Positions 6,483 through 31,200 of a stretch of DNA of 64,000 nt are shown one piece after another. The position numbers were made by a program, and so were the translations under genes. Origin of the DNA: Caenorhabditis elegans (lineage: Eukaryota > Nematoda > Chromadorea > Rhabditida > Rhabditidae). The number at the start of each line of letters is the position of its first letter. Within the stretch, counting starts at the first letter, position 1. The notes under the pieces were generated by a model, which was given only the letters and a program-made list of their open reading frames with translations, ran no database searches and was not told where the DNA came from. The stretch lies in the NCBI RefSeq assembly GCF_000002985.6, contig NC_003280.10, positions 3,034,501 to 3,098,500 of the forward strand, read 5' to 3'.

Positions 6483-8906
6483 TTATCTCTGATTGTGCAG
6501 ACATCTCACTGAATTAACATCAATAGTTACAGGTCCGGTTCCGGCGTCTGCCGTATAGGTCCACGTCATATCAGCACTATTGCAGGTTACAGTAATTGTT
6601 ACTTCTTGGGGTTCGAATTGGCCTTCCAGTGGAATTGTTTGTGCATTCAATTGCATTAAAACGGTGTACCCATCAATTGCAGAGCAGCTAATTTTCATTG
6701 TGGAAGTGGAGTCGGCTGTTCCGGCAATTGGTGTCGACATGAAGCTGGAATAAATATTTTAAGTACGTTTTTACAACTTAAATTCATGATTCACAATTCA
6801 TGAATTCATGCTTCCAAACTAACTCTGAATAGGTAACATCGACCATCGTTTGAGGCTGATTAGCGTCTCCCACTCCCAACATTACCGCTTCAGGATTACA
6901 CTTCCTATTCTCAACTTGTTGGCAGGTCACAGTGTCAAGCGCCTGTGTGGATGGCTGTCCATTCACCATCGTCACGTAGTTCCATATCATATCTGCAGTG
7001 TTGCACTGAGCATTTATAGTAACCGTCTGGGGAGGTGGGTCCAGATTGTTTTCCACTGGGGTGAAGGCTCCATTCAGATCCATTTGCACGTTGAAGTCGT
7101 CGGCTCCAGAGCAAGTGATTGTCATTGAGGAGACGCCGGCTGTAGTTGTAACTGCTGAATGTGTAACATCGATGGCGACCTCAGGGGTTTGATCGTCTCC
7201 AACTCCATAAGTTATCAACGCCGGATCACATGGCACCGGCTCCGGATCCGGTCCCTCTCCCGGCAAATTCTGAACTTGTTGGCAGGTCACACTGTCAAGC
7301 GCCTGTGTGGATGGCTGTCCATTCACCATTGTCACGTAGTTCCATATCATATCTGCAGTGTTGCACTGAGCATTTATAGTAACCGTCTGGGGAGGTGGGT
7401 CCAGATTGTTTTCCACTGGGGTGAAGGCTCCATTCAGATCCATTTGCACGTTGAAGTCGTCGGCTCCAGAGCAAGTGATTGTCATTGAGGAGACGCCGGC
7501 TGTAGTTGTAACTGCTGAATGTGTAACATCGATGGCGACCTCAGGGGTTTGATCGTCTCCAACTCCATAAGTTATCAACGCCGGATCACATGGCACCGGC
7601 TCCGGATCCGGTCCCTCTCCCGGCAAATTCTGAACTTGTTGGCAGGTCACACTGTCAAGCGCCTGTGTGGATGGCTGTCCATTCACCATTGTCACGTAGT
7701 TCCATATCATATCTGCAGTGTTGCACTGAGCATTTATAGTAACCGTCTGGGGAGGTGGGTCCAGATTGTTTTCCACTGGGGTGAAGGCTCCATTCAGATC
7801 CATTTGCACGTTGAAGTCGTCGGCTCCAGAGCAAGTGATTGTCATTGAGGAGACGCCGGCTGTAGTTGTAACTGCTGAATGTGTAACATCGATGGCGACC
7901 TCAGGGGTTTGATCGTCTCCAACTCCATAAGTAATCAACGCCGGATCACATGCCACCGGCTCCGGATCCGGCCCCTCTCCCGGCAAATTCTGAACTTGTA
8001 GGCAGGTCACACTGTCGAGAGGTTCGGTGAACGTTTCACCATTGATCACAGTCACGTAGTTCCATTTCATATCGGCGGTATTACACTGAGCATTGATAGT
8101 AACTGTCTGGGGTAGTGGATCCTGGTCGTTCTCGGCTGGTGTGAAGGCTCCATTAAGCTCCATTTGCACATTGAAGTCAGTGGCTCCAGAGCAAGTAATT
8201 GTCATTGAGGAGGTACCGGCTGTAGTTGTAACTGCTGAATGTGTAACATCGATGGCGACTTCGGGGTTTTGATTGTCTCCTTGTCCAAGAACAAGTGTGT
8301 CCGGAGAGCATGCTGGTTCTGAAAGTTTTTTTTGGCTTCTCGGATATTTTTCGGATTTTTTTGGAATATTTTAATACATTTTCACAAATTTTTTTCACTG
8401 GAAATCCCCTGAAAGTTGAAAAATGGTCCAAAATTAAGCCTAAGCCGTAGCCTAAATCTAAGTCAAAGCCCAAGCCTAACCCTAAGCCTAACTAAGTCTA
8501 AACCTATGTCAAAGCCTTAGCCTAAGCCCAATCCTAAGCCTAAGCCTCAACCTAAACCTAAGTCTAAAACCCTTTGAAAAATCAAAAAAACGCTATAAAC
8601 CCAAGCCTAAATAGCGTCAGAGCTAACGCTCGCCACTGACGCCAAGCTTAAGCCTAAGCCTAAGACTAAACCATAGCCTACGCCTAACCCTAAGCCCAAG
8701 CCTAATCCTAAGCCTAAGCCTGAACCAAAGCCTAAGCCTAAGCCTAAGCCTAGGCCTAAACTTAAGAAAATCGACTTACCTGCCGGAGCCACCGTACTTG
8801 TCACAATTGGCTGCTGTGGAGTCTGAGTAGCGAAACAAGATTCTGAATTTTTAGCAATTAACAATAGAACCGAAAAGCTTAGCCAACAGACTAAGGAAGA
8901 CGACAT
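6483..8906 (-). CDS. Secreted protein with five tandem C6-like extracellular domains
   Basis: Exons 8906-8780, 8318-6824 and 6744-6483 give 627 aa, in frame throughout. The start MSSSLVCWLSFSVLLLIAKNSESC is a signal peptide. Five copies of a roughly 120-aa module follow, each running CDPALITYGVGDDQ, IDVTHSAVTTTAG, SSMTITCSG, VQMDLNGAF, QTVTINAQCNTADMIWNY and LDSVTCQQV. Neighbours are joined by an acidic linker, LPGEGPDPEPV. Cysteine spacing and the threonine-rich strands resemble the nematode C6/DUF281-type extracellular domain, but each module shows four rather than six cysteines. The last module is split by the final intron and is more diverged. Modules 2-4 are almost identical at DNA level. 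Function is unknown; an extracellular matrix or mucosal role is only a guess. Confidence 0.85.
6905..8318 (-). repeat. 360-bp coding tandem repeat of the C6-like gene
   Basis: The period is exactly 360 bp (120 codons). The blocks 7141-7500 and 7501-7860 read identically base for base. The flanking units differ by a few substitutions (for example at 6970, 7932 and 7953), and the outermost units are clearly older. Confidence 0.92.
8428..8772 (+). repeat. Interstitial telomere-like hexamer tract
   Basis: Diverged GCCTAA units on the plus strand fill the first intron of the C6-like gene. They are interrupted at about 8570-8645 by unrelated sequence. In the minus-strand transcript the tract reads TTAGGC. 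Confidence 0.88.
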
Positions 8907-22334: not shown

Positions 22335-25300
22335 ATGTCAAAGATAAAGACACATTCCACTGGCTCAAAACGGACGGTACCATTCTACAAGCTGCCACCG
22401 CCCGTGCCACTTCCACCACTCCCGCCACCCGATCCAACCCGGTACTTCTCGACGGAAAAGTACATCGCACTGAGCAAAGATGAGAAATTCAAATTTGATG
22501 ATTACGATGTGAATGATGAGACGCTGAAAAAAGTGGTGCTCAACGAGATTGGCAAGTGCCCGGATATTTGGAGCTCGCGGAGCCAGGCAGCCATTATGGA
22601 GCACTATCCGATTGTTGCAACTGAAACGTACAGGAGGACAGGGTTGCTGTTGTCTAGTGAGATTTTTTTTTAGATTTAAAAATTGAAAAAAAAAATGGAA
22701 ATTAAAAAAAATTTTTTTTTTTCTAATATCAAAAATAATATTTTTCAACTTATATTTCTCATATTTTCCAAGTTTCCCGAACTCTTCTGACTGCTAAAAA
22801 AATAATTCGCCACCATGGGGATCGAACCCGAGACCCTCCGACCTGAACTTTAGTCGAAAATCCCACTGCGCCATTTGGACGCTTTTCTGAAAAGGTTCAA
22901 ATTTGAAGTTTTTACACTAAGAATTGCCTATTTTTCTTTTTTTTAAAGCGTTTAGAAACCCGAAAAAAATTTTAAAAAATAAAATTTCAAGCTTTTCCCC
23001 ATTTTCCAAAAAGTTGTCCGAGTGGCGCAGTGGGATTTTGGCGTGGCTCGACGCACAAGGCCACAGGTTCCATCCCCATGGTGGCAACTTTTTTTTTTTG
23101 AAAGTCAGATACGCTTAAAAACGAGTAAAATTATGATCTTTCGCTACTTTCACCGAAAAATATACTCAATTTTCAATTTCCCAATTTTTTGAGTTTTTTT
23201 TTCCATTTTTAGGAAATTTTCAAATTGAATTTTGCCGAGCATTTAAGAAAAATCAGTTCAGAAACCCGAAAAATTATCGAAAATGCCGAAAAAATCGATA
23301 AATTTCAAGCTTTTCCCCATTTTTCAAAAAAATGCGTGACTGGCGCAGTGGGATTTTGGTGCAGCTCGACCCACAAGGCCACAGGTTCAATCCCCGCGGT
23401 GGCAACTTTTTTAAAATTTTTTTTTTCAAAGCCAAGAAAACCTAATAATGAATGAAATATTGATTTTTTGCATTTTTTCTACTAAAATTTCCCCAAAATT
23501 TCAGTCAAATCGCTGAAACAAATCTACAAATGCGGAAAGGACAATCTCCGAAACCGGCTTCGCGTGGCAATTGTAAGCAAGCGGCTTACACCGGCCCAAG
23601 TAGAGGCCTATATGTGGCGCTGGGAGTTTTACGGCTTTATTCGCTACTATCGAGACTATACACAACGCTGGGAGGCCGACTTGTTGAAAGATTTGGACGT
23701 GGTGCTCGGGCTCGAGGCTCGGCGAGCATCGAAAAATATGGAAAAGGTGGATTCTGGGGAGCTCATGGAGCCCATGGAGCCCATGGATTCTACAATGGAT
23801 GAGATGTGCGTCGAGGAGGAGCCCTACGAGGAGACAGGGTCCAATTGGAGCGATCCGGCGCCGGAGTGAGTTCTGCCCAGTTTTCTGCATTTTGGCGTGA
23901 ATTCTGGTGTTTAGTGTTTGAAAAAAAAATGCCTTATTGGTTTTTCTATAAATTTTGAAAAAAAAATTCGCATTTTTGAAAAAAAAAATTTTTTTTGAAA
24001 TTTTTGAAAAAAATTTTTTTTTTGAAATTTTTGAAAAATTTTTTTTTTCAAATTTTTCAAAATCAAACACAAACACAAGATAACTTTGTAATTTCAGACC
24101 ATCCCAATCCAAATCCCAGTCCCCAGAAGCCAAGTACCCTCAAGCCTACCTACTACCTGAGGCGGACGAAGTCTACAATCCTGACGATTTCTATCAAGAG
24201 GAACATGAATCCGCATCAAACGCCATGTATCGGATCGCTTTCTCACAGCAGTACGGTGGCGGCGGGTCCCCAGCCGTGCAGAAGCCCGTCACTTTTAGTG
24301 CTCAGCCGGCGCCGGCGCCAGTTAGAGAGGCCCCAAGCCCAGTTGTGGAGAATGTTAGTTCATCGGTGAGTTTTTTAGGGAGTAGCTCAGGAGCAATTCT
24401 GAAAAAAAAAACAAAAAAAAATTGAATTTGAAATTTAAAAAAAAAATTTTTTTTGGACTAAAAAAATTCGCAAAAAAAAATTACCAAAATTTTTTTTTCA
24501 ACTTCTTTCTCATATTTCTCCAACTTTCCGAACTCCTCTGACTGCTAGAAACATAATTCATCCCCGTGGGGATCGAACCAGAGTCAAAAATCCCACTGCG
24601 CCATTTGGACGCTTTTCTGAAAAAGCTTAAATTTGGGGTTTTTACATTAACAATAAGACTTTTAAAGTGTTAAGAATCCCTAGAAACTATCCGGAGTGCC
24701 AAAAAATCGAGAAATCTCAATTTCCCCGAATTTTCCAAAAAATGGTCAGATCGGCGCAGTGTTATTTTGGAGTTGCACGACCCAAGAGGTCACAGGTTCG
24801 ATCTCCACGGTGGCAATATTTTTTTGCAAAGTCAGATAAGGGTGAAGTTATGATTTGTTTCAATTTTTGTGCTAAAATTTCTCCAAACTTAGAAAAAAAT
24901 TTTTGGTCAAACATTTTTTTTCCAACTTTTTGGAAAAATGCTACCAAACATATATTTTCAAATTTACCGAACTCCTCAAACTGCTAAAAAAAAAAATTTA
25001 CCCCCGTGGGGATCGAACCCGAGACCCTCCGGCCTGAACTTTTGTCGATAAACCCACTGCGGTATTTGGACGTTTTCTGGAAAAGTTTAAATTTGGAGTT
25101 TTTACACTGCCAATAAGAGCTTTAAAGTGTTTAGAAACCCTAGAAACTATCCGAAGTGCCAAAAAATCGATAAATTTGAAGTTTTCCCGAATTTCCAAAA
25201 AAAATGTCCAAATGGCGCATTGGGATTTTGGAGTTCCTCAACGCACAAGGTCACAGGTTCGATCCCCACGGTGGCAACTTTTTTTTTCAAAGTCTGATAA

Positions 25301-25626
25301 GGGGGAAATTATGATTTTTTTGTCAATTTTTGTGCTAAAATTTCTCCAAAATTAGAAAAAAAAATTTTTTGGTCAAAAAAATTTTTTTTTTCAAAATCTC
25401 AAAAACAATGTTTCAGAGTTTCACCCCGAAGCCCCCGGCCATGATCAACAATTTTGGTGAGGAGATGAACCAAATAACATACCAAGCGATCCGTATTGCC
25501 CGAGAGCAGCCGGAACGTCTGAAATTGCTCCGTAAGGCACTTTTCGACGTTGTCCTGGCGTTTGATCAGAAGGAATACGCCGATGTTGGGGATTTGTACA
25601 GGGATTTGGCGCAGAAGAATTCGTGA
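22335..25626 (+). CDS. MADF-domain protein, copy B
   Basis: Exons 22335-22656, 23505-23865, 24098-24365 and 25417-25626 give 386 aa. The order is a proline-rich N-terminus (PPPVPLPPLPPPDP), then the MADF-type domain LKKVVLNEIGKCPDIWSSRS, IVATETYRRTGLLL, KDNLRNRLRVAI and YMWRWEFYGFIRYYRDY. An acidic stretch MCVEEEPYEETGSNW follows, then a disordered P/S/A-rich segment, then EEMNQITYQAIRIAREQPER and LLRKALFDVVLAFDQKEY. It shares exon plan and phases with copy A. Likely a nuclear DNA-binding regulator (inference from the domain). Its first and third introns and its 3' flank host all the tRNA-like foldback repeats of this window. The start is the first ATG after the acceptor at 22323. Confidence 0.87.
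22809..23088. repeat. Foldback element with tRNA-like ends, copy 1
   Basis: The left end, 22809-22880 on the minus strand, is 72 nt long and carries TGGCGCAGTGGG (a perfect A box) and GGTTCGATCC (a perfect B box). The right end, 23013-23088 on the plus strand, has the same A box and GGTTCCATCC. About 130 bp of AT-rich sequence separates the two ends. Confidence 0.8.
23334..23405 (+). repeat. Solo tRNA-like end
   Basis: A single plus-oriented copy with TGGCGCAGTGGG and GGTTCAATCC. No minus partner is seen to its left apart from copy 1. Confidence 0.75.
24561..24816. repeat. Foldback element with tRNA-like ends, copy 2
   Basis: The minus end at 24561-24610 is shortened, missing the middle. 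The plus end at 24744-24816 has CGGCGCAGTG and GGTTCGATCT, i.e. partly decayed boxes. Confidence 0.75.
25001..25278. repeat. Foldback element with tRNA-like ends, copy 3
   Basis: The minus end is 25001-25071 and the plus end 25204-25278, both with GGTTCGATCC. The spacer is homologous to that of copies 1 and 2 (TTTAAAGTGTTTAGAAACCC). Confidence 0.8.
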
Positions 25627-26668
25627 TAATTTTTTTTTGAGTTTTTTAATTTTTAATTTATTTCAATTTTTGTTACATGTTCCAATATAATAAACAGGTG
25701 CTTGTTTGATTTTTCACTTTTTTTGTGAATAAACATCGATAATTTCAAGGAAAAAAATTATTCATACCCGTGGGGATCGAACCCGAGACCCTCCGACCAG
25801 AGCTTCAGTCGAAAATCCCACTGCGCCACTTGGACATTTTCCTGGAAAATTTCAAATTTAAAGTTTTTACACTAAGAATCTAGTTGTTTTAAATTTTTTT
25901 TGCGATTCTATTGCTTCCAAATATGATTTACCTAGTAAAAACTCAAACTTTTTGGGTTTTTTTTGGTATTTTTTCAGACAATTTTTTTTATTGAATTTTG
26001 CTGAAATTTTAAGACCAAATCCGTTTTTAGCGTTTAGAAACACGAAAAAATCGATATTTTTACAGTCTTTCCCATTTTCAAAAAAAAATTGCCCGAGTGG
26101 CGCAGTGGGATTTTGGCTCGGGTCACAAGGTCACAGGTTCAATCCCCACGGTGGCAAATTTTTTTTGCAAGGTGAGATAAGCCTAATAGGGATTAAAGTA
26201 TTGGTTATTTGCAATTTTATCGAGAAATATACCATATTTTTTAAGTAGAATATTGAAAAAAAACCAGAATTTAAAAAATTTGGAATTAAAAAAAATGTTT
26301 TGGAATTTTTTTTTTGAAGTTTTTGTTTAATTTAGAATGTCTCAAAACTCTTCCAAAATATTTTAAAATGGTTTTCTCTATACTACCTCACGTTCAAACA
26401 CTTCTAAAACGTGCCCAAACACCCGGTTTTGAGACAATTCCAGGCTAGGCCTCTGGAAAACCAGTGACCTCTGGAAATGAAGGCTGCTAACAATATTGAT
26501 TAGCCTAAAAACGCGCGATTGGGTCTCGCAGCGCGTTTATCGATCGGTTTTTGCCGTTTTTAGCGCGTTCTCGCGAGCATCCTTCCAGTCGACTGTCCCC
26601 TCCATTTCAGTTGTCTGCTGCTATTACAGCCTGCTGCTGCTGCTGCTAATCCTTTTCTCCTGTCACCA
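25627..26668. other. Intergenic region, same-strand genes
   Basis: Contains a poly(A) signal AATAAA at about 25689 for MADF copy B, the fourth tRNA-like foldback element, and then AT-rich sequence. The stretch just before the next start (26600-26660) has a CTG/TGC run. Confidence 0.6.
25764..26157. repeat. Foldback element with tRNA-like ends, copy 4
   Basis: The minus end is 25764-25835 (A box TGGCGCAGTGGG, B box GGTTCGATCC). The plus end is 26089-26157 (A box TGGCGCAGTGGG, GGTTCAATCC). It lies downstream of MADF copy B. Confidence 0.8.
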
Positions 26669-27535: not shown

Positions 27536-27706
27536 AGACCGTTGCACCATGTGTCTCCTAATTTTTTGCAGTTTTTTTTGGAATTCTGACCGTTTTAATA
27601 AACTTTTTTTGCACAATTTTCGTTAATCCAAGATAAATCGATAAGTTATCGATTTTTGGCCGCACAAAAAACGAATAAAAAATAAATAAAAATAAACAAA
27701 AGTAAT

Positions 27707-27777
27707 TGCATCGACCGGGAATCGAACCCGGGCCGCCCGCGTGGCAGGCGAGCATTCTACCACTGAACCACCGATGC
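27707..27777 (-). tRNA. tRNA-Gly (GCC)
   Basis: 71 nt that fold as a full cloverleaf: acceptor GCATCGG/TCGATGC with discriminator A, D arm TTCAGTGGTAGAA, anticodon arm CTCGCCTGCCACGCGGG with anticodon GCC, and T arm CCCGGGTTCGATTCCCGG. The copy at 27884 is identical in the tRNA part. There is no intron. Confidence 0.97.
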
Positions 27778-27883
27778 TTGTCTGTGACGATCTGATAAGA
27801 CAACTTCGATATCACTTATCGCCGAAACAAACAAACAAACAATCGACTAAGAAATCTTATCAATTTCACCGCCGTTCGAACAA

Positions 27884-27954
27884 GCATCGGTGGTTCAGTG
27901 GTAGAATGCTCGCCTGCCACGCGGGCGGCCCGGGTTCGATTCCCGGTCGATGCA
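27884..27954 (+). tRNA. tRNA-Gly (GCC)
   Basis: Identical 71-nt tRNA-Gly(GCC) in opposite orientation, 106 bp from its partner. A T run directly after it (27956 on) is a suitable Pol III terminator. Confidence 0.97.
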
Positions 27955-28264
27955 ATTTTTTTAAATTCTTAATTATTGATAATAGTGCTGCGAAAAATCG
28001 ATACATTATCGATTTTTCGTTAAAAAAACCTGGAAAAAAACGTCGGAATGGTCTTTATTTATCGATTTTCTATGCACACAGGAGAAATCAATAAAAATCA
28101 CATAATATCACAAGAAAAGGTACAGTAAGTGACTACAAGTGGAACAGGTTGGGTGACGTAGATAAAATTTTCCGGAATTATGCGATTTTAGTGTGGGTAA
28201 AATGGGGGTAAAGCAGGGCAAAAACGAGAAAAAAAACTTTTTTTTTTGCAGAAAAATCGATAAT

Positions 28265-31200
28265 TTATTGATTTTTTTCAGTGGAATTCGTTGCGGCGGC
28301 GGCGGCTTCAGTCGAATTTTCAGAAATTTCAGCGGCCGGCAACTTTTCGGTGCTTTTTTCAGTAGTTTCGGTCGGTTTTTGGTCGATTTTTTCGTCTTTT
28401 CTAACTTGGGGTACGGTAGTTGGCGATGACGTGGCATTCTCGGGTGCTGATGGCTCTGCGTCGTCGGGTTTTGTCTGAAAATTTGGATTTTTTGGGTTAT
28501 TTCTAGAAAATTTGGCAAAAATCGATAATTTATCGATTTTTTCACGTAAAAATCGATAAATTATTGATTTTTCAATCTTCCAACACACAATTTAGCAATT
28601 TTTATCGATTTTTTGACAATTTTCACTAAAAAATCGATAATTTTTCGATTTTAAAACTATTTTCACTGAAAAATCGATATTTTTTGAATTTTTTAAGGAA
28701 AAATCGATTCTCAAAATTCTCAAAATTTTTAAAAATCGATAAATTCCCAAAAATAGGGAAAAAAATCGATATTTTCCAAAAAAAATTTTGGAAAAAAATC
28801 GATAATTTCTCGAAAATTTGAAAAAATAGATTTTTTCAGAAAAAAATCAATATTTTCCAAAAATTAGAAAAAAATCAATACTTTACAAAAAATTTGAAAA
28901 AAATCGATATTTTTCAAAAAAATTGAAAAAAATCGATATTTCTCAAAATTTTGTAAAAATCTATTTTTTCAAATTTTTTGAAAAAATCGATAATTTTTCG
29001 ATTTTTTTCAATTTTTTGTGAAAAATCGATATTTTTTGAATTTTTTAAGGAAAAATCGATAATTTATCGATTTTTCACAATTTTCACTAGAAAATCGATA
29101 ATTTATCGATTTTTGACATTTTTCAACGAAAAATCGATATTTTTTGAATTTTTTACCGCAAAAATCGATATTTATCGATTTTTTGGCAATTTTTACTGAA
29201 AAATCGATAATGTTTTTTGACTTCTCGCAATTTTTCAGTGTTCCAACCCAAAATTTGGTCATTTTTCCAAAATTTTTGCCCAAAAAGCGGCAAAAATCGG
29301 CAAAATTTTTTCAGGAATTTCCATTTCCCTTACCACTTCCGCCGACTCTCGTTTCTTATCATCACTTTTCACCGCTACTACAGTAGTAGTCTCCGTGTTC
29401 GTAGCGGCCTGCAAAAAAATCGATTTTTCCCGAAAAATCAATACTACAAACTACACTTTCTTGAGAATTTGAAGAAAAAAAAAAATCAAATTTTCCAAAA
29501 AAAAAAAAAAAGGATTTTTTGGAAAAAATCGATATTTTTCAAAAAATTGAAAAATCGATATTTTTCAAAAAAATTGGAAAAAACCGATATTTTTCAAAAA
29601 ATTGGAAAAAAAATCGATATTTTCAAAAAATTGAAAAAAATCGATATTTTTCAAAAAATTGAAGAAATCGATATTTTTCAAAAAAATTGAAAAAAATCGA
29701 TATTTTTCAAAAAATTGAAAAAAAAATCGATATTTTTCTAAAAATTGAAAAAAATCGATATTTTTCTAAAAATTGAAAAAAATCGATATTTTTCAAAAAA
29801 CTGAAAAAAAATCGATATTTTTCAACAAATTGAAAAAAAAATCAATACTACAAACTACACAAACCTCCTTCTGATTCGGTGCTTCTGGCGCCGGTACTGT
29901 AGCATTCTGAATCATGATTACTGTAGTTGTGTCGATGAGAAGTGCTGCTGGAGCTGCTGGGCTCAGCGGAGCTCTGGAGCCCGCCGCCGGGTGCATTGCG
30001 TCAAAGTAGAACTCCTGAAAATTGAATTTTTTTTTTTAAATGGCGGAAAATCAATAAATATTTATTATTTTTTTACATTTGGAGAATCGAATAAATTAGA
30101 GCCCAGTTTACAGAAAAAGTCAATATTTTTCCAAAAAAGTTTTTTTGAAAAAAATCGATATTTTCTAAAAATTAGAAAAAAATCAATAATTTCACAAAAA
30201 ATTGGGAAAAATAGAATTTTTGAATAAATTTGAAAAAAATCGATAATCTCTCAAAAAAACTGAAAAATCGATTTTTTCTAAAAATTTTTTTAAAAATCGA
30301 TATTTCTCAAAATTTTTAAAAATCGATATATTCCCAAAAATAGGGAAAAAATCGATATTTTCCAAAATAAACTTTGGAAAAAAATCGATAATTTCTCGAA
30401 AATTTGAAAAAATCGATTTTTTCAGAAAAATTTTTTTTTGAAAAAAATCAATATTTTCCAAAAATTAGAAAAAAAAATCTATACTTTACAAAAAATTTGA
30501 AAAAAATCTATTTTTCGCAAAAAAAAGAAAAATTAAAAAATCGATAATTTTCAAATTTTATGAAAAAATCTAGAATTTCTCCAGAAAGTTGGAAAAAATC
30601 GATTTTTTTCCAAAAAAAAAATTTGATTAAAAAATCGATTTTTTCAAATTTTTTGAAAAAATCGATAATTTTCGTGAACAAAAAATTACAGAAAAAAACA
30701 CAAAAAAAGCACAGAAAAGAGAGGGTAAATTTATTAGATAGGAGAAGGAGAAGCCACCACGACGATGTGCATCGAATCAAAGAAATAAACCTTAAAAGTG
30801 AAGGCGAGCAGGAAATGGAGCACGACGACACTGATTACGGTACCGAATGCGATCTGGAAATTGATTTTATCGATTTTTTTAATAGGAAAATCGATAATTT
30901 AAAAAAAAACGGTATTTTTCAATTTTTTTCGATTTTTTTCGACTGAAATTGACTGAAAATCAGGAGTTTTTCATTGATTTTTATCGATTTTTCGGTAATT
31001 TTTCAATTTTTTGAGCTATAAGGCTATTTTTAAACGTATTTTTTCAAATTTTTTGGCTTAAATTATTGGTTTTTTCAAAATTTCTTAAAATATCGATTTT
31101 TTCGAATTGTTTGCGAAAAACCACGATTTTTTGGGAAAATATCGACTTTTTTTAAAAATTAAACGAAACATATCGATTTTTTCAATTTTTTGGGAAAATA

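What the first reader, a model, noticed from the sequence alone, without database searches (positions are those of the whole stretch)
22809..26157. Foldback repeat family whose two ends are tRNA-like and carry intact Pol III boxes
Four elements of about 255-395 bp, plus one solo end, cluster in and just after one gene. Each full element has a minus-oriented tRNA-sized end on the left and a plus-oriented one on the right, with a shared AT-rich spacer. The ends contain TGGCGCAGTGGG, which fits the A-box consensus exactly, and GGTTCGATCC, which fits the B box. That is not an ordinary SINE (one head, one tail) nor an ordinary MITE (no coding-like ends). It looks like a non-autonomous element that uses tRNA-derived sequence as its terminal inverted repeats. 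It could make Pol III transcripts inward toward a neighbouring copy or outward into the host gene.
Basis: partly seen in the sequence, partly recalled or inferred. Interest (0 to 1): 0.8.

Follow-up and report, generated by a model that had tools for sequence, protein, structure and literature searches.

The report
Paired tRNA-promoter repeats in worm introns
Five decayed copies of a worm repeat sit in and beside one gene, four of them carrying a pair of outward-facing tRNA-style control sequences; they are most likely members of a known roundworm repeat family that binds the protein complex TFIIIC without being transcribed.

Summary
Nine homologous modules (58-83 nt) lie at 22806-26157: four inverted pairs (E1, E3, E4, E5) and one solo right module (E2). 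E1-E4 are in introns 1 and 3 of a Lin-8-domain gene with an open frame; E5 lies 137 bp past its stop. Box A is exact in 6 of 9 modules, box B in 7 of 9, both in 5 of 9. A T-run follows 8 of 9, so each would be a short, self-terminating, outward-facing Pol III unit. Left modules resemble left and right resemble right, so the pair was copied as a unit.

Two corrections. The modules are not the element's ends: homology continues outward, about 24-95 nt on the right in all five copies and 45-69 nt on the left in three of four. And they no longer fold as tRNAs: only the promoter skeleton remains.

Best reading: copies of the C. elegans repeat CeRep3 ('putative tRNA pseudogenes'), which in print makes up 214 of the 225 repeat-overlapping TFIIIC sites that lack Pol III. 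This rests on description; no worm genome or repeat library was available. The paired layout is the one point I did not find described.

The parts
22806..22888 (-). E1 left module: box A exact (22862-22873), box B exact (22818-22828), T7 downstream
23018..23086 (+). E1 right module: box A exact, box B one mismatch, T11 downstream
23334..23405 (+). E2 solo right module: both boxes exact; preceded by spacer homologous to E5's long spacer
24563..24620 (-). E3 left module: both boxes exact but about 21 nt between them deleted; no T4 run found downstream
24745..24815 (+). E3 right module: box A three mismatches, box B one
24999..25070 (-). E4 left module: box A one mismatch, box B exact
25205..25277 (+). 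E4 right module: box A one mismatch, box B exact
25763..25835 (-). E5 left module: both boxes exact
26091..26157 (+). E5 right module: both boxes exact, 26-nt gap
22741..23173 (.). E1 including shared flanks
23183..23500 (.). E2 (left part missing) including shared right flank
24494..24890 (.). E3 including shared flanks
24952..25394 (.). E4 including shared flanks
25751..26240 (.). E5 (long spacer) including shared right flank
22335..25626 (+). Host gene with Lin-8 domain; predicted exons 22335-22656, 23505-23865, 24098-24365, 25417-25626; 386 aa; E1+E2 in intron 1, E3+E4 in intron 3
   Evidence: prediction, no transcript data

Best explanation
These are old, partly decayed copies of a non-autonomous interspersed repeat of Caenorhabditis, most likely the CeRep3 family ('putative tRNA pseudogenes'). 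The repeating unit holds two outward-facing Pol III type internal promoters (box A, mostly 26-33 nt, box B, T-run) in inverted order, their A boxes 148-269 bp apart. The most likely activity today is binding of TFIIIC to the better-preserved modules (E1L, E2R, E5L, E5R first) without recruiting TFIIIB or Pol III, that is, as 'extra-TFIIIC' sites. Shown here: anatomy, box matches, shared ancestry as a unit, intronic position, loss of tRNA structure. Shown in print for CeRep3 as a class, not for these copies: TFIIIC binding without Pol III; and for extra-TFIIIC sites as a class: clustering in autosome arms, enrichment in introns. Inferred: that these copies are CeRep3 and are bound. An insulating or nuclear-periphery role is a possibility raised by that paper, not shown.
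For: Nine homologous modules with boxes and T-runs. Pair ancestral: left/right split best of 126. Shared flanks. tRNA fold lost: ARAGORN and Rfam find only two real tRNA-Gly genes; E5L and E5R scanned alone give no tRNA match; acceptor stem 0-3 of 7 pairs against 7 of 7 in the control. Host gene with Lin-8 domain, neighbours with Sri and Srg domains fit Caenorhabditis. PMC6950938 (abstract, sections 5-8 and 11 read): 504 TFIIIC sites without Pol III, 90% with box A and 87% with box B; 214 of the 225 that overlap repeats are CeRep3; median spacing 1207 bp within arms; over-represented in introns and in the arm with the pairing centre.
Against: No CeRep3 sequence was available, so membership rests on description. 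PMC5270495 (passages) gives Cerp3 as about 1000 bp, against about 390-490 bp aligned in the paired copies here. All five copies lie within 3.5 kb, so local duplication could explain the shared flanks, and I cannot show that this family is dispersed. Box A has decayed in 3 of 9 modules and box B in 2 of 9. 279 of the 504 published sites overlap no annotated repeat. No binding data for this locus; the species and chromosome position were not tested.
Confidence: 0.62

Rival explanations
1. A Pol III-transcribed, SINE-like repeat (for example CELE45 or a relative): the modules make outward RNAs of roughly 90 nt that end in the T-runs.
For: Both boxes exact in 5 of 9 modules and T-runs of 6 or more in 8 of 9. 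CELE45 exists in C. elegans, and 95% of its active copies are reported Pol III-bound (PMC8457455, passages).
Against: T5 runs are common in this locus anyway (29-34% of positions within 25 nt). Four of nine modules have a damaged box. CELE45 may be active in wild populations (PMC5850821, passage), whereas modules here differ by about 5-25% within a side.
Confidence: 0.15
2. The part that matters is the RNA foldback: in the host pre-mRNA, E1, E3 and E4 form long imperfect hairpins that serve as ADAR or small-RNA substrates. This can coexist with TFIIIC binding.
For: Fold z-scores -10.2 (E1), -5.1 (E3), -7.9 (E4), -9.9 (E5), no shuffle as good.
Against: Any inverted repeat folds. No editing or small-RNA data; the one paper search on this gave 0 papers. 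E5 lies past the stop and E2 has no partner.
Confidence: 0.12
3. A local relic: a divergent pair of tRNA pseudogenes duplicated within this gene, not a dispersed mobile family.
For: All five copies are in one 3.5-kb stretch, none elsewhere in 64 kb. E3 and E4 look like a tandem duplicate (79% over 445 positions). A real divergent tRNA-Gly pair lies 1.5 kb away.
Against: Similarity of the modules to that tRNA-Gly is weak (1-49 of 500 shuffles as good). Acceptor, D and T stems are broken in all nine. The distinct left and right forms predate the copies.
Confidence: 0.08
4. One reading: a cut-and-paste (MITE-like) element whose terminal inverted repeats are tRNA-derived.
For: Inverted modules, AT-rich centre, no coding capacity seen.
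Against: Shared sequence continues outside the modules, so they are not the termini.
Confidence: 0.03

Closest known systems
CeRep3 / Cerp3 interspersed repeat of C. elegans
   Same: Called putative tRNA pseudogenes; makes up 214 of the 225 repeat-overlapping TFIIIC sites without Pol III; such sites carry both boxes, cluster, and are over-represented in introns (PMC6950938).
   Different: Reported as about 1000 bp (PMC5270495); sequence not compared here; the words inverted, palindrom-, orientation, hairpin and divergent do not occur in PMC6950938.
Extra-TFIIIC (ETC) sites of yeast and human
   Same: TFIIIC promoter elements without a functional Pol III gene.
   Different: Those mostly have box B only (stated in PMC6950938); here box A is often kept too, and sites come in inverted pairs inside a repeat. 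Binding here is not shown.
CELE45, putative SINE of C. elegans
   Same: Pol III-related repeat (PMC8457455).
   Different: Transcribed and raised with age and heat (PMC8457455), possibly active in wild populations (PMC5850821); sequence not available for comparison.
tRNA-derived SINEs in general (recalled)
   Same: tRNA-type internal promoter that has lost tRNA folding.
   Different: A SINE has one head and a tail; here four of five copies have two heads facing outward, and neither a common tail nor element ends were identified.

Membership tests
CeRep3 / extra-TFIIIC sites | Sequence match to the CeRep3 consensus | not testable with these tools
   No repeat library or worm genome held; the WormBook chapter cited for CeRep3 is not held; pattern scans of bacterial and viral collections found nothing.
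CeRep3 / extra-TFIIIC sites | Both box A and box B present | tested here: met
   Both exact in 5 of 9 modules; at most one mismatch in total in 8 of 9.
CeRep3 / extra-TFIIIC sites | TFIIIC bound, Pol III and TBP absent | not testable with these tools
   No ChIP-seq data at hand.
CeRep3 / extra-TFIIIC sites | About 1 kb long, dispersed, 50-100 copies (PMC5270495) | tested here: inconclusive
   Aligned length about 390-490 bp in the paired copies, true ends not found; five copies in 64 kb, all local.
Functional tRNA gene | Cloverleaf found by ARAGORN or Rfam RF00005 | tested here: not met
   Only 27707-27777 and 27884-27954 found; E5L and E5R scanned alone: no tRNA match; stems broken in 9 of 9 modules.
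MITE / TIR transposon with tRNA-derived termini | The inverted repeats are the element's termini, with host DNA and target-site duplication outside | tested here: not met
   Shared flanks outside the modules on the right in five of five copies and on the left in three of four. Local duplication of host DNA is not excluded as their cause.
SINE | Single promoter head with a tail | tested here: not met
   Four of five copies have two inverted heads; no common tail recognised in the alignment.
CELE45 | Sequence match to CELE45 | not testable with these tools
   Consensus not available.

The most novel reading that the evidence does not exclude
The repeat spread and persists as a bivalent TFIIIC dock: two outward-facing box A/box B modules copied as a unit, with the A boxes 148-149 bp apart in the three short copies (269 bp in the long one), so that paired TFIIIC complexes would flank about one nucleosome. 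A repeat would then have seeded paired extra-TFIIIC sites through the chromosome arms of an animal that lacks CTCF.
Probability: 0.12. Interest if true: 0.55.

Novelty: new member of a known kind. Interest (0 to 1): 0.3.

Why it matters
If these are CeRep3 copies, they add an anatomical detail that I did not find in the chromatin study: TFIIIC-type sites in this repeat can come as inverted, outward-facing pairs copied as one unit. It becomes testable whether paired sites bind TFIIIC or position chromatin differently from solo ones such as E2. On its own it is a modest refinement of a published association.

Tried and rejected
Considered and dropped. (1) Functional tRNA or another Rfam family. 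Matches to miRNA-precursor families over E1 (MIR7533, best E 0.00093; MIR2606) and E4 (MIR2646, MIR2670) lie far below gathering scores (32.9 against 230 bits for the best); I put them down to hairpin shape. Vault-like matches at E4L and E5L are weak (E 1.2 and 9.9). (2) The nearby tRNA-Gly pair as parent: similarity above shuffles but weak (1-49 of 500 shuffles as good, nine modules). (3) Inverted symmetry beyond the modules. Outer flanks, 20 left-right pairs: lowest 3 of 200 shuffles as good (E3L/E4R) and 10 of 200 (E3L/E3R), the other 18 from 27 to 177 of 200; within elements 69, 554, 519 and 352 of 1000. Inner spacer within elements: E4 5, E1 138, E3 418, E5 989 of 1000; of 12 cross-element pairs E5L/E4R had 0 of 300, E4L/E1R 10, E3L/E1R 17, E4L/E3R 20. 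So weak inner symmetry may exist. (The full-length profile also matches the elements on the minus strand, as the modules alone would cause.) (4) Stronger conservation of the modules than of the rest: identity 0.92 (left) and 0.84 (right) against 0.85 in adjacent spacer and 0.74-0.78 in flanks (E3/E4 pair left out of the totals; global alignment of AT-rich sequence inflates flanks). No clear sign of selection. (5) Further copies in the window: the full-length profile gives about 40 weak hits outside the elements at E<=1, the best at 29158-29302 (17.3 bits; best in 20 shuffles 11.2 bits) covering spacer only, without boxes; not counted.\n\nSearches that led nowhere: bacterial/archaeal contigs, 2 scans, 0 hits. 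Viral contigs, 3 scans: 3 stretches with a 17-base pattern, 0 when box B was also required, 0 with a right-module pattern. Paper searches on Pol III boxes with inverted repeats: 6 listed; 0; 1; 1; of those listed only PMC2888827 was looked into (passages). It reports a bias in the orientation of antiparallel tDNA pairs in Caenorhabditis, but its arrow notation is not consistent, so I did not use it. Module letters as search terms: 0 papers. Follow-up papers on extra-TFIIIC sites in C. elegans: 2 listed, one the same paper. CeRep3: 1 paper; CERP3: 1. [quoted passage not shown] joined the predicted exons of the host worm gene to check its frame. One search fetched three viral-contig loci (L001-L003), not studied. 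Scripts made shuffled copies of window stretches as controls.
Full report
WHAT IS THERE. The window looks like Caenorhabditis: the gene that hosts the elements has a Pfam Lin-8 domain, and open frames with Sri, Srg and Adaptin_N domains lie nearby (6 of 9 frames given to Pfam had a match). I take it to be C. elegans, but the species was not tested, and no whole genome is held. Nine homologous modules of 58-83 nt lie on the minus strand at 22806-22888, 24563-24620, 24999-25070 and 25763-25835 (left) and on the plus strand at 23018-23086, 23334-23405 (solo, E2), 24745-24815, 25205-25277 and 26091-26157 (right). A predicted four-exon model of the host gene with GTGAG donors and TTTCAG acceptors reads 386 aa without a stop (no transcript data). 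E1 and E2 lie in intron 1, E3 and E4 in intron 3, and E5 begins 137 bp past the stop.

IS IT MORE THAN CHANCE. Yes. A profile of the nine modules finds those nine (by construction), nothing else in 64 kb at E<=10 and nothing in 20 dinucleotide-shuffled windows. The best BLASTN match of each of the ten element pairs has an E-value between 3e-19 and 3e-110 (rows that were only the overlap of two query stretches are left out). All six exact box A sites in the window are in these modules, as are seven of the nine exact box B sites; the other two are in tRNA-Gly genes.

THE PROMOTER SKELETON. Against the recalled consensus TRGCNNAGYNGG and GGTTCRANNCC, box A is exact in 6 of 9 modules, box B in 7 of 9, both in 5 of 9, and 8 of 9 have at most one mismatch in total. 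The gap between boxes is 31-33 nt in seven modules, 26 in E5R and 12 in E3L. A run of six or more T starts 13-16 nt past box B in 8 of 9 (not E3L). In this AT-rich locus 29-34% of positions have a T5 run within 25 nt, and the copies share descent, so the T-run is suggestive only. Box order makes all nine face outward.

NOT A FOLDABLE tRNA. ARAGORN and Rfam at gathering scores find only two tRNA-Gly(GCC) genes, 27707-27777 and 27884-27954. A permissive Rfam scan (E up to 10) lists no tRNA match at any of the nine modules. Two modules, E5L and E5R, were also scanned alone, without a tRNA match. With tRNA numbering anchored on the boxes, acceptor pairs are 0-3 of 7 (random mean 2.7), D stem 2 of 4, best anticodon stem 3-4 of 5 in eight modules (0 in E3L) and T stem 2-3 of 5; the tRNA-Gly control gives 7, 4, 5 and 5. 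The modules do resemble the tRNA-Gly sequence slightly (1-49 of 500 shuffles as good). tRNA ancestry is plausible from box layout and size but not shown.

A UNIT, BUT NOT WITH THESE ENDS. Left modules resemble left and right resemble right: the L/R split is the best of all 126 four/five splits, and modules of one element are no more alike than others. So an ancestor with distinct left and right modules was copied as a unit. E2 keeps the right half plus spacer homologous to E5's long spacer (0 of 500 shuffles as good), so it looks like a truncated copy. Homology continues outside the modules. Right flanks: in 9 of 10 element pairs at most 7 of 500 shuffles are as good, in E4/E5 26 of 500. Left flanks: E1/E3, E1/E4 and E3/E4 0 of 500; the three pairs with E5 at chance, 79-223 of 500. 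By BLASTN the shared stretch runs about 24-95 nt past the right modules (partly T-run) and 45-69 nt past the left ones of E1, E3 and E4, but only 10-14 nt in E5. Outer flanks are mostly not inverted copies of each other and the inner spacer is at most weakly so (figures under tried and rejected). The modules are thus sub-terminal or internal, and the true ends are unknown. A caution: all copies lie within 3.5 kb, so local duplication of host DNA could also give shared flanks. The distance between the two A boxes is 149, 148 and 148 bp in E1, E3 and E4 and 269 bp in E5 (coordinates).

RNA FOLDING. Each paired element folds better than every shuffle (z -10.2 E1, -5.1 E3, -7.9 E4, -9.9 E5), as an inverted repeat should. 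In intronic RNA this is a possible ADAR or small-RNA substrate; no data were at hand.

COMPARISON WITH WHAT IS KNOWN. PMC6950938 (Stutzman and others 2020; abstract, sections 5-8 and 11, references) reports 504 TFIIIC-bound sites without Pol III or TBP in C. elegans embryos, 90% with box A and 87% with box B. 225 overlap repeats and 214 of these are CeRep3, which it calls putative tRNA pseudogenes, citing a chapter not held. The sites cluster (median spacing 1207 bp within arms), are over-represented in introns, and favour the autosome arm with the pairing centre. PMC5270495 (passages) gives Cerp3 as about 1000 bp with 50-100 copies. The elements here fit that description in boxes, clustering and intronic position, but are shorter as far as aligned, and I had no CeRep3 sequence. 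Another Pol III-related repeat, CELE45 (PMC8457455, PMC6873666, PMC5850821; passages), is transcribed; it cannot be excluded by sequence either. The text of PMC6950938 holds none of the words inverted, palindrom-, orientation, hairpin or divergent, so the paired layout may be unremarked there; older papers on the family were not available.

VERDICT. 'tRNA-like termini' is corrected to 'paired TFIIIC-type promoter modules inside a longer, decayed repeat', most likely of a known family. Interest is modest; the paired layout is the point worth following.

Noticed in passing
27699-27781 and 27880-27962: Two identical tRNA-Gly(GCC) genes in divergent orientation form an 83-nt inverted repeat, 98% complementary, 98 nt apart (fold z -23.7): the same minus-left/plus-right geometry as the elements, 1.5 kb away.
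   Followed up: partly
27631-27657, 27991-28017, 28250-28276: Three copies of a 27-nt repeat like AGATAAATCGATAAGTTATCGATTTTT around the tRNA-Gly pair.
   Followed up: no
29158-29302 (-): Weak match to the spacer part of the full-length element profile (17.3 bits, E 1.4e-5; best of 20 shuffles 11.2 bits); perhaps a remnant, perhaps AT-rich composition.
   Followed up: no
6784-8370 (-): Open frame of 528 codons with four matched stretches of the Pfam C6 domain; the repeat units look nearly identical.
   Followed up: no
24512-25394: E3 and E4 look like a local tandem duplicate inside intron 3 (79% identity over 445 aligned positions).
   Followed up: partly
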